A stretch of 64,000 bases of DNA from Rhizomucor pusillus (Eukaryota > Mucoromycota > Mucoromycetes > Mucorales > Lichtheimiaceae): NCBI GenBank assembly GCA_900175165.2, contig FWWN02000225.1, positions 1-64,000 of the forward strand. Reading direction: 5' to 3'. A program made the position numbers and the translations under genes. The notes under the pieces were generated by a model that worked only from the letters and a program-made list of their open reading frames with translations, searched no databases and was not told the DNA's origin. This document shows positions 2,401 to 6,093 of the stretch, piece after piece (the first letter of the stretch is position 1; the number at the start of each line of letters is the position of its first letter).

Positions 2401-4055
2401 TCTGTCTGTTCCTGACAGATTCTCAGTTTGAGGTCCTAGGACCACTGCTTGTCTTCAACACCATCCACTAGGTAGAAACTTGATTACGTGTGGGGTTTTC
2501 AGCCGCAAAATTGATATTTGTTTGATATACTTGTCGTAGAAGTTAAATGGCGGAACATCAAGGCAATCCCGAAACTGATTCCCTTGCACTTGTGGAAATG
2601 CAAGCATTAGAGCAAAGGCTCGACGAGGTTTTCCCACAGAGTATTGGTCGCTTGGAAGAAGAACAGAGGGCCAACTCCAGCCGCATGGATGACATTGTTG
2701 CCGAGTTGCAAGGGCTCCGACTATGGCTGCTGTCACACCCTTTGCACTGCTGCTCTTAGATATCGAACTTTCGGATGAACATGAAGTCTCCGTTGTTCGA
2801 GGCGATGTTATCCCAATTGATTTTGCTCGATTTTTTCGCCTGTTACCAACAGTCCTACACCTAGGCGTGTTGCTAGTCTCTCGCAGCGTAAAGGCCATAC
2901 ATGCTGCGGATCTTCGGATAATGATGTGCTAGAGACTACAAATTTGAAATTTGCATCGATGAATTCTTTTAGCGGATAAGGTTTGTTCTTTTGCTTGCAA
3001 CCCGAAATGAAAGAAGCTATTTCTACAAAGAATAAGACTGCGTGTAGTCTATCATGTTGCCAAATATACTGTCTTCTATCCGGGAACTGTCGTCTATGTC
3101 AATTAGCAACGCTTTTGTAAGGAACAGTCGAGCCCGTATCGCTCTTCCAGACAGCAGGCAATGCGCGGATTACGCGACTGTGAGGTTCAAGACGATCATG
3201 TTCCTGCACCGAGATGTGAAAATCAGCATATCTCCTACCCATTAGATTCTGAAATGTCTCTCTATCAGTTGTCCTTATTTATGGCTACGATCCCAACCGG
3301 TTCGTTCATGGACGGCTTCATATGGTAGCTTTTACCATACAGACACGTTCTGGGCAATGATGTAAGTTTTAGCATCAAAATTATGGATCGCCTGCAACAT
3401 CAACTAGATAAATCGCCAGATCGACGAGCTATCTGGTAAGAACTTGCCTTCCGTTGAGAAACGATGTATTCGTGGCTGCCTCGTCCCTGCCGCGCAATAA
3501 TGAATCAGTGTGGAAGAAATTGGAGAGATTATATGGATAATGCATACTGTCTTCCCCGAGAAGTGTGCTGTAACAGGAGAGCAAATGGAGTTGTGCTCGC
3601 AGAAAGCGAAGAACAGATGATCATGCGCAGAGAAGCATAACGAAACAATTGGCGGGGATCTAGACGCAACGTTCATATTATTCATGATCAGCATACATTT
3701 ACGTTGCTGTATGTTGTATGATTTGTAAAATTAGATTTATGTCTATAAGAATAAACAATCAAAGCGGCCTCTTTGCTTGTAGATGCACAACAGGTTTCTA
3801 TATAAATATACTTTGCAGTAGACCTATGTGAGCAGCAAAGGATAGAGATCATAAACTGTGGGCCACGGCTCGAATTGATCCTTGGCTCTGAGCTTGCGTG
3901 ACTCTGAAGAGCAATTGCAGAAAAGGAGCGCGATTTCAAACGAGCGCACTATCGGGTCCTGCTTACTGAATACCATACTTTATAGTTTCTACTCTGGTAA
4001 GAAAACAACGACGTTGCGGCATATAACTGAATGTCTTTGCTAATGCAAATACGAA
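2401..4055. other. Accessory interval, no intact gene
   Basis: No reading frame here has convincing coding character. Short stretches near 3400-3640 (for example REVCCNRRANGVVLAESEEQ) look like eroded coding DNA but are cut by stops. The last 100 bases form the upstream region of LSM12. Confidence 0.4.
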
Positions 4056-4895
4056 ATGAATAAGATGGAAGGCACAGCACAGCAGTCGCAGCGCCGAAAG
4101 TCCTTCACAAAGTCGACGACCGCGACCGTTGGGCCGGCCAGGACATCGTTGGAAGGGTTAGTGGGCCGCCAAATCAAGATCAAGACTGCTTCCAACGAAC
4201 AGATTGAAGGACGCATCTTTACATACGATCGCGTATCGAACTTTATTGCGCTAGATATCCTTTTTGATTCTACAGTTGAAATGCTGCTAACTATCAAAAC
4301 CTTTCCGAAATCATCTCCTTGACGCAGAAACACAGTGCTCTAGCCCGCCTCGTCATACCCGTAAAGGACTACCTTTTCGAATTATAAAGATTTCACATAT
4401 CAAAGAAGTCTTGTCAAACGAGCCGGCAACGGATCCAGAGTTCTTTCCTATCAATTATCTATATGTCGACCGTCTGAACGCACGCGAATCTGCAGGAGTC
4501 AAGAACTTACGCCAGCGTGTAGCGAGAATGGGTGTCGGCGTGACCAAAGAAGCTCAAGATATATTCGATGCACTGAGCAAGACGTAAGTGGCAATCTAGT
4601 TGCAAGAAAGCATGGCATTTCTCATGCAACAGCTTCTTGTACGTCTCAGATTACCATGTCGCTGGGCAAACGATACTATTGTTGTATTGGATGAGGTTCT
4701 TATAACACCACCTTACGATGTTGACAATTGCAAAGCGAACTTGTCTTCAGCCGCGTCGCTAGCCCGTGTAAAGAAAGTTGTAAGTTTGATGGAGTTTGGA
4801 TGTAAAGACCAGATACGCTGTTATTAACAGCTCCTTTTAATAATTTGCAGCTGGAAGGAGAGAGGAAACGTATGGGAAATGCAAGGAAACAATAA
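4056..4895 (+). CDS. LSM12: LSM12 homologue (Lsm and anticodon-binding domains)
   Basis: RNA-binding protein of the LSM12 family: an N-terminal Lsm fold followed by the AD (anticodon-binding-like) domain. The family works with ataxin-2/Pbp1-type proteins in mRNA control (family knowledge). Exons 4056-4254, 4334-4583, 4650-4779 and 4851-4895 sum to 624 nt, 207 residues; human LSM12 has 195. Visible landmarks are LVGRQIKIKTASNEQIEGR (Lsm strands), FIALECSSPP (human has LALKCPSSS at this place), INYLYVDRL, and the AD-domain signature IVVLDEVLITPPYDVDNC. Intron 1 (4255-4333) is AT-AC. No GT-AG choice I could find keeps the frame, while the AT-AC junction restores the family alignment exactly. The G-patch gene follows on the same strand. 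Confidence 0.93.
4255..4333 (+). other. U12-type AT-AC intron in LSM12
   Basis: The intron starts ATATCCTTTTT, the canonical AT-AC U12 donor, and ends ...AAACAC. A U12 branch-site match, TCTCCTTGAC, lies at 4314-4323. Its branch adenosine at 4322 is 11 nt from the intron end, inside the usual narrow U12 window. The junction is phase 1 (G|AG gives Glu). Alternatives fail: a GTTGAA donor at 4275 paired with the GCAG at 4326 runs into a stop after about 19 codons. A GTATCG donor at 4233 paired with the TAG at 4344 also gives a stop. Confidence 0.85.
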
Positions 4896-5037: not shown

Positions 5038-6093
5038 ATGCTCGACAAGTGGAACGATTCCTTTGCTAAATCACAGCTTGAAAAGTACGGCTGGAAAAGG
5101 CAAGTACAGAAGGACTTTACTCTTCTGACGATAAGCGATCTTCGATGATTGACATCGATCTGTAGCGGTGAAGGCTTAGGAAAGGAAAAACATGGTAATG
5201 CCAAACATATTACCGTAACAGTCAAGAACGACACCAAAGGCGTTGGCAGCAACAATGAGCAATGGGACTTTGCCTGGTGGGACCACTTATACAACAAAAG
5301 CGCCAACGCTGTCAGCGTTGCAAAGGATAGCGAAGCTGGTGTAGTAAGTTATGTCGATCGTAAAGTGAGAATATGCACGAGTTAAATATTGTTTGCATCG
5401 TTTTCATTGTTATAGGTCAAAATCGAAACGAAGAAGAAGATTGGAGAGAGGCGGACGCGAACAGGCATTATTAGTGCACATCGTCCCACCGGGAAGAAGG
5501 AACCTACCAGCATGGCTGCAGTGGCAGAAGAACAAAATCTATCCGATTCTGTGCGGGATCTACAGACAAATATGTCGCAGATAATTGCCCGGACATCATT
5601 ATACAGTGGTTTCGTAAAGAGCTCGTAGGTGAATGCATAATCTATATGTATACGCAGCATTAAAAGCAGATCTTGAAGCACGCAGTCTCCTTCATCGACT
5701 CCGCAAACACCAAGCGACGATGAAGATGATCAAAAAGATTACTCAATCAAAATAACGGACGAAGAATTGTTTGCTGCATGTGAAGGGAGGACAGCTCGGA
5801 AGGGAGGTCGTGGCCTTGTAGAACAGAAGGGGAAATATGCAAGAGTCATGACGGAATATCTCAAATACGCCAATGATGAAAAGAACGAAACGCCTGTGAA
5901 ACGAGACGTACCAGAAGGGAACGAAGCTACATCAGCGACAAAGGGTAAGATTTCACGGAAAGAAAAGAAGAAGAAAAAGGACAAGAAGCGGAAACTCTCT
6001 GATGATAACAAGACCAGCCCGCCGTCGAAAAAACATAAGAAAGAAAAGAAAGAGAAAAAGCAGAAGAAAAAGAAGAAGGATAAAAAGGACTAG
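5038..6093 (+). CDS. G-patch protein, GPATCH4/Tma23-like
   Basis: Nucleolar G-patch protein, probably in ribosome biogenesis (inferred from the family). Exons 5038-5099, 5166-5343, 5416-5624 and 5679-6093 sum to 864 nt, 287 residues. The N-terminal G-patch shows YGWKSGEGLGKEKHG, then KNDTKGVG and WDFAWWDHLYNKSAN. This order (G-patch, KxDxxGxG, WWxxLFN) matches human GPATCH4 and yeast Tma23. The C-terminus, from about residue 225, is almost pure Lys/Glu/Asp (KEKKEKKQKKKKK), a typical nucleolar tail. Intron 1 (5100-5165) is GC-AG with the usual strong donor AG|GCAAGT. The last acceptor (5678) was chosen by frame and is the least certain. Confidence 0.88.

What the first reader, a model, noticed from the sequence alone, without database searches (positions are those of the whole stretch)
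4255..4333. Textbook U12-type AT-AC intron in fungal LSM12
The gene only reads through with an AT-AC intron that has the full donor ATATCCTTTTT and a branch site TCTCCTTGAC whose adenosine is 11 nt from the 3' end. This junction gives FIALECSSPP, matching human LALKCPSSS, and all four exons then sum to a multiple of three. GT-AG alternatives hit stops. U12-type introns are rare in fungi and AT-AC ones rarer still.
Basis: partly seen in the sequence, partly recalled or inferred. Interest (0 to 1): 0.85.

Follow-up and report, generated by a model that had tools for sequence, protein, structure and literature searches.

The report
Conserved AT-AC minor intron in LSM12
A fungal gene (LSM12) carries a rare AT-AC intron that is predicted to be cut out by the cell's second, minor splicing machine; more than two dozen sequences with the same signals lie elsewhere in this genome, and the same site is probably misread in many public fungal gene models.

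Summary
Confirmed in sequence, ordinary in kind, unusual in detail. Window 4255-4333 has a perfect U12-type donor (ATATCCTTT) and a branch site one letter off consensus, its A 11 nt from the AC end. Splicing gives a 207-aa LSM12. The claim that GT-AG alternatives hit stops is wrong: 21 GT-AG pairs stay in frame; splice-site quality and homology disfavour them. The genome holds U11 and U6atac above Rfam cut-offs and a weak U12 candidate; U4atac was not found. The donor-plus-branch pattern hits 30 places against 1 for its backwards control; 27 of 30 start with A. At 10 of 33 other predicted junctions a Pfam domain spans the join above cut-off, all with A donors spliced to an AC, which my script required. 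Among 120 LSM12 homologues, 8 public models seem to read into an intron here and 44 lack or alter the block. Fly and human LSM12 have a GT-AG U12 intron, so the subtype may have switched. No RNA evidence was available.

The parts
4056..4254 (+). LSM12 exon 1 (start at 4056 or 4065; in-frame stop at 4041), ends ...ATT GCG CTA G
   Evidence: homology
4255..4333 (+). predicted U12-type AT-AC intron, 79 nt, phase 1
4255..4265 (+). U12-type 5' splice site ATATCCTTTTT; CCTTTTT is complementary to the 5' end AAAAAGGG of the genome's U11
4314..4323 (+). U12-type branch site TCTCCTTGAC; likely branch A at 4322
4334..4583 (+). LSM12 exon 2
4584..4649 (+). U2-type GT-AG intron (GTAAGT...CAG), 66 nt
4650..4779 (+). 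LSM12 exon 3
4780..4850 (+). U2-type GT-AG intron (GTAAGT...CAG), 71 nt
4851..4895 (+). LSM12 exon 4 with stop codon

Best explanation
The 79 bases at 4255-4333 carry a full U12-type donor and branch site inside the LSM12 gene of a fungus, probably a Mucorales species, and are predicted to be removed as an AT-AC intron by the minor spliceosome. Likely steps: the 5' end of U11 (AAAAAGGG) pairs with the donor, U12 pairs with TCCTTGAC and bulges out the A at 4322, U6atac replaces U11 at the donor, and the 3' cut falls after the AC at 4333. That joins CTA-G to AG-TGC and restores the LSM domain. Shown here: the motifs, the open frame, the homology, the U11 and U6atac genes and the sister candidates. 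Inferred: the pairing in vivo, the splicing, and the role of the weak U12 candidate. The intron is probably old, because models from Lichtheimia, Apophysomyces, Umbelopsis, Rhizophagus, Basidiobolus and Thamnocephalis seem to read into the same donor at the same place and phase.
For: Donor with 0 of 9 mismatches and branch with 1 of 9, best of 137 open AT-AC/GT-AG pairs. Only such combination in the window. Spliced protein matches AD and LSM12_LSM and is 75% identical over 88% to a Fennellomyces protein with an uninterrupted junction, LALDCS. U11 75.2 bits (cut-off 39) and U6atac 50.1 bits (cut-off 33). U12 candidate 24.7 bits (cut-off 53), whose 5' end ATGCCT.AA..AATGAGTAAGGA follows the U12 consensus. 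Pattern TATCCTT-N30-60-TCCTTRAC: 30 hits, control 1; longer version 7 hits, control 1. Ten of 33 other predicted junctions scanned are spanned by a Pfam domain above cut-off: TatD, Ion_trans, IBN_N, TBC, RNB, MIOS, Prefoldin, CLP1_N, DCP2, Gaa1. Six public homologues (P0004, P0008, P0039, P0055, P0071, P0074) read D/N/H-I-L-F/L exactly at the junction, as expected if ATATCCTTT were left in.
Against: No RNA reads for this genome. U4atac not found by Rfam at E<=10 nor by one pattern. The U12 candidate is below its gathering score, at E<=10 the same model also rings in 7 of 14 prokaryote controls (none over cut-off), it drops out at E<=0.1 in a 30-kb scan, and its fold is no better than shuffles (z -0.37). 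CENATAC (PF14968) gave no match (one candidate scored) and zf-U11-48K only 15.2 bits, below its 21.1 cut-off; these protein searches work exon by exon and are weak. Donor:U11, branch:U12 and donor:U6atac duplex energies are matched by 38, 28 and 15 of 500 shuffles, so base composition explains part of them. An AT-AG pair shifted by 2 nt scores slightly higher on homology. The read-through models are protein sequences; the DNA behind them was not seen. Twenty-three of 33 other scanned junctions have no Pfam domain spanning them above cut-off, and my script allowed only AC ends after A donors.
Confidence: 0.93

Rival explanations
1. A U2-type GT-AG intron at 4275-4335 is used instead, and DILFDST is a real loop in the protein.
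For: Stays in frame to the natural stop and scores close in homology (3074 against 3133). A CTAAC branch-like word lies at 4287-4291. Some public models keep ILF at this place.
Against: Donor GTTGAA is 4 of 6 letters off GTRAGT, while the gene's other two introns both start GTAAGT. The match of donor and branch to the U12 consensus would be coincidence. The closest homologues (P0001-P0003) have no such insertion.
Confidence: 0.04
2. The intron is real and U12-type but ends elsewhere, or is often retained or spliced at several 3' ends.
For: AC also at 4331 and AG at 4335 close by. [quoted passage not shown]
Against: Of the U12-donor pairs, 4255-4333 has the best branch match, at 11 nt, and keeps the frame; use of 4331 gives a frame that ends 18 codons on.
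Confidence: 0.03
3. Chance resemblance in a non-functional or misassembled stretch.
For: No transcript evidence; sequence alone.
Against: 30 hits against 1 control, intact 207-aa frame with both domains, traces of the same site in other lineages.
Confidence: 0.005

Closest known systems
U12-type intron 1 of LSM12 in Drosophila (CG15735) and human (PMC2831892, Table 2 in section 8, read)
   Same: Same gene, first of the listed introns, U12-type; in fly ovaries removal of the lsm12a minor intron depends on Miso (PMC12084885, passages).
   Different: GT-AG there, AT-AC here. Whether the codon position is identical was not tested.
U12 introns of Phycomyces and Rhizopus (PMC2846911, section 11 read, passages)
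   Same: Zygomycete relatives; AT-AC minor introns supported by ESTs.
   Different: There AT-AC and GT-AG in similar numbers in Phycomyces (9 and 8, or 8 and 12, by method); here 27 A-type against 2 G-type perfect-motif candidates. 'LSM' does not occur in its main text.
Minor introns of Rhizophagus irregularis (PMC10639083, section 34 read, passages)
   Same: Early-diverging fungus, minor snRNAs, consensus motifs.
   Different: 205 minor introns and all four minor snRNAs there; LSM12 does not occur in the main text. A public R. irregularis model (P0055) seems to read into this very intron.
Minor snRNAs of Lichtheimia corymbifera (PMC4133162, passages)
   Same: U12 with an atrophied third stem, U6atac with a highly divergent second half, U4atac not detected: close to the picture here.
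   Different: No list of U12 introns was seen in the passages.

Membership tests
U12-type (minor) intron | 5' splice site [AG]TATCCTTT | tested here: met
   ATATCCTTT at 4255, 0 of 9 mismatches
U12-type (minor) intron | branch site TTCCTTRAC close to the 3' end | tested here: met
   CTCCTTGAC, 1 of 9 mismatches, A 11 nt from the last base
U12-type (minor) intron | AT-AC or GT-AG ends | tested here: met
   AT at 4255-4256, AC at 4332-4333
U12-type (minor) intron | no polypyrimidine tract between branch and 3' end | tested here: met
   GCAGAAACAC follows the branch site (read by eye)
U12-type (minor) intron | minor-spliceosome snRNAs in the genome | tested here: inconclusive
   U11 and U6atac above cut-off; U12 candidate below cut-off; U4atac not found
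U12-type (minor) intron | removed by the minor spliceosome in cells | not testable with these tools
   no RNA data or experiment
LSM12 protein | C-terminal AD (anticodon-binding) domain | tested here: met
   95.5 bits, cut-off 23.4
LSM12 protein | N-terminal LSM domain | tested here: inconclusive
   29.2 bits, E 7.6e-07, cut-off 29.5; Fennellomyces homologue 37.3 bits
LSM12 U12 intron of animals | same position and phase in the protein | not tested
   Animal gene structures were not available; Table 2 of PMC2831892 gives intron number 1 of 4 only

The most novel reading that the evidence does not exclude
Lichtheimiaceae-type Mucorales run a remodelled minor spliceosome that works almost only on AT-AC introns, with a cut-down U12 and no recognisable U4atac or CENATAC, so the U4atac/U6atac step is done by a strongly diverged RNA or by another partner of U6atac.
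Probability: 0.1. Interest if true: 0.8.

Novelty: new member of a known kind. Interest (0 to 1): 0.45.

Why it matters
It adds a well-supported AT-AC minor intron in a gene whose animal orthologues carry a GT-AG one, so a subtype switch at an old intron becomes testable. It points to a fungal genome whose perfect-motif minor introns are nearly all A-type, where human has about a quarter AT-AC (24%, PMC8280824 passage; about 26%, PMC10639083 passage). It also suggests that LSM12, and perhaps other such genes, are wrongly modelled in many early-diverging fungi, as gene finders often miss AT-AC ends (recalled). The failure to find U4atac both here and in Lichtheimia (PMC4133162) deserves a dedicated search.

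Tried and rejected
Rejected: exclusion of GT-AG by stop codons. Rejected as uninformative: duplex energies against shuffles, fold energies of the U12 and U6atac candidates (z -0.37 and -0.14; U11 does better, z -2.57). Led nowhere: Rfam scan of the window (0 matches); U12 at E<=0.001 (0 matches); U12 by the animal-like motif ATGAGTAAGGAAAANAAC, 12 hits against 11 control hits and no Rfam match at E<=1 in the 10 loci fetched; U4atac by Rfam and by pattern; CENATAC and zf-U11-48K families; further RNA families within 10-kb stretches holding U11, U6atac and the U12 candidate (U11 and U6atac only); PDB sequence search (0 matches). Literature: minor introns with Mucoromycota, 0 papers; LSM12 with minor intron, 2 papers, and with U12-type, 4 papers, of which I saw passages or one section of two and the listing of the others, with no fungal LSM12 intron in what I saw; minor spliceosome with Mucorales, 2 papers, passages of both seen; further listings. 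I did not fetch human LSM12 letters to test the animal position.

Full report
What is there. The + strand at 4056-4895 encodes a 207-aa protein in four exons (199, 250, 130, 45 nt). It matches Pfam AD (95.5 bits) and LSM12_LSM (29.2 bits, cut-off 29.5), and its best database relatives are proteins of Fennellomyces (75% identity), Phascolomyces (70%), Zychaea (66%) and Lichtheimia ornata (64%). Fennellomyces and Lichtheimia are Lichtheimiaceae, order Mucorales, so the genome, 24.45 Mb in 353 contigs, is probably from that part of the Mucorales; this rests on one protein.

The intron. Position 4255-4333 is ATATCCTTTTT...TCTCCTTGACGCAGAAACAC, 79 nt, phase 1. Scored against RTATCCTTT and TTCCTTRAC it is the best of 137 AT-AC/GT-AG pairs that leave the frame open to 4583. 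On the whole window no other RTATCCTT is followed within 30-230 nt by an exact TCCTTRAC. What favours AT-AC is the coincidence of donor, branch, spacing and homology. Summed alignment scores against six homologues are 3133 for this AT-AC pair (second of 337 in-frame candidates), 3138 for an AT-AG shifted by two bases that lacks the U12 donor, and 3074 for the best GT-AG (4275-4335, donor GTTGAA). For two of the six homologues (P0033, P0044) the AT-AC pair is not among the top three.

The machinery. Rfam models find U11 at C25:94654-94781 (75.2 bits, cut-off 39) and U6atac at C293:8029-8123 (50.1 bits, cut-off 33). Two weaker U6atac-model hits are ordinary U6, a positive control. U11 starts AAAAAGGGC, complementary to CCTTTTT of the donor. 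U12 gives a single weak hit, C104:26801-26913, 24.7 bits (cut-off 53), whose 5' part ATGCCTCAATTAATGAGTAAGGA follows the consensus, with an Sm-like AATTTTTT downstream. At that loose threshold the model also rings in 7 of 14 prokaryote controls, none over cut-off, and the candidate's fold is no better than shuffles. U4atac was not found by Rfam at E<=10 or by one pattern. In Lichtheimia corymbifera the authors likewise report a U12 with an atrophied third stem, a highly divergent second half of U6atac and no U4atac, in assembly or reads; they suspect an assembly fault, and say that the other basal fungi have one unremarkable U4atac (PMC4133162, passages). In Apophysomyces U4atac and U12 were not present in the assembly (PMC5604411, passage). 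The U6atac here keeps an AAGGACGG stretch where U4atac should pair (pairing recalled, not tested), which argues that a diverged U4atac still exists.

Sister introns. TATCCTT-N30-60-TCCTTRAC occurs 30 times in the genome; the backwards pattern occurs once. The base before TATCC is A in 27, G in 2, C in 1. ATATCCTT-N61-91-TCCTTRAC adds 7 (control 1). GTATCCTT-N30-60-CCTTRAC gives 4 (control 1), 2 of them the same places as before. I spliced the best open frame in silico for 27 of the 30 first loci besides LSM12 (L015 and L033 had no AC in range), and for 6 of the 7 longer ones (L056 gave no output from my script). For A donors the script allowed only AC ends. A Pfam domain spans the predicted junction above its cut-off in 6 of 27 (TatD, Ion_trans, IBN_N, TBC, RNB, MIOS) and 4 of 6 (Prefoldin, CLP1_N, DCP2, Gaa1). 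In the first six no AG lies 8-21 nt beyond the branch A, so AC is not only an assumption there. Matches that span below cut-off: LSM12 itself, a second TBC gene (L029), and weak ones in L013, L028 and, by one residue, L019. L011 (IPK, above cut-off) and L057 (Ion_trans, then an EF hand below cut-off) match beside the junction, not across it. Of the four G-type hits, L035 gave no Pfam match; L018 had no AG in range, was spliced to an AC and gave none; L050 left 4 residues after the junction and L052 had no AG in range, and these two were not scanned. Among perfect motifs A-type donors thus predominate, but a pattern this strict may favour A-type introns.

Other fungi. I aligned the 120 listed homologues (of 215 found) and sorted them by a simple letter rule at the junction: 68 keep the block, 8 seem to read into an intron, 44 lack or alter the block, some of these being short or partial proteins or natural variants. 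The six clear read-throughs carry D/N/H-I-L-F/L exactly at the phase-1 codon: Lichtheimia ornata P0004, Apophysomyces P0008, Umbelopsis P0039, Rhizophagus irregularis P0055, Basidiobolus P0071, Thamnocephalis P0074. That is what ATATCCTT(T) would give if left in. P0059 and P0067 are less clear. In the four checked (P0004, P0008, P0055, P0074) the LSM match stops at profile position 29-38 of 60, against 60 in the Fennellomyces model. Within one genus, R. clarus P0044 has VVLQTSSAS where the R. irregularis model has VVLHILFGSL. The simplest reading is an AT-AC intron shared by Mucoromycota and Zoopagomycota (placement of these genera recalled) that gene models miss; the DNA of these species was not seen.

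Comparison with what is known. LSM12 intron 1 is U12-type and GT-AG in fly and human (PMC2831892, Table 2), and splicing of the lsm12a minor intron in fly ovaries depends on Miso (PMC12084885, passages). U12 introns are known from Phycomyces and Rhizopus (PMC2846911) and Rhizophagus (PMC10639083). So the kind is known. I saw no description of the AT-AC state in fungal LSM12 in the held library; I read only parts of the papers, and open databases such as the one of PMC10639083 could not be consulted. Blastocystis ST1 is the AT-AC-rich case named in the passages of PMC10639083 that I saw (77%).

Verdict. A well-supported U12-type AT-AC intron, predicted but not shown to be spliced; a new member of a known kind, with three open points worth work: the AT-AC bias, the missing U4atac, and the probably misread gene models.

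Noticed in passing
L021 and L029 (G000:C106:37668-37729, C235:4342-4401): Two TBC-domain genes, apparently paralogues, each carry an AT-AC candidate at the same place (FF[LM]|RDAMLDS), as if the intron was kept through a duplication; the second TBC match is below cut-off.
   Followed up: partly
L054:1501-1613 (G000:C104:26801-26913): Short, diverged U12 snRNA candidate, below the Rfam cut-off but with the consensus 5' end.
   Followed up: partly
whole genome G000: U4atac not found by Rfam or one pattern; CENATAC (PF14968) gave no match and zf-U11-48K only a weak one, with searches of limited power.
   Followed up: partly
L060, L059, L058, L061: AT-AC candidates interrupt sequences that match the DCP2, CLP1_N, Prefoldin and Gaa1 Pfam families.
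   Followed up: partly
P0075-P0118 (Mortierella-group LSM12 models): Many read NCVCPSK where a few (P0061, P0072, P0078) read NC[VL][VA]LQCP, as if the annotation chose another donor a few codons upstream.
   Followed up: no
window 5040-6093, + strand: The next gene downstream looks by eye like a G-patch protein with several GT-AG introns.
   Followed up: no
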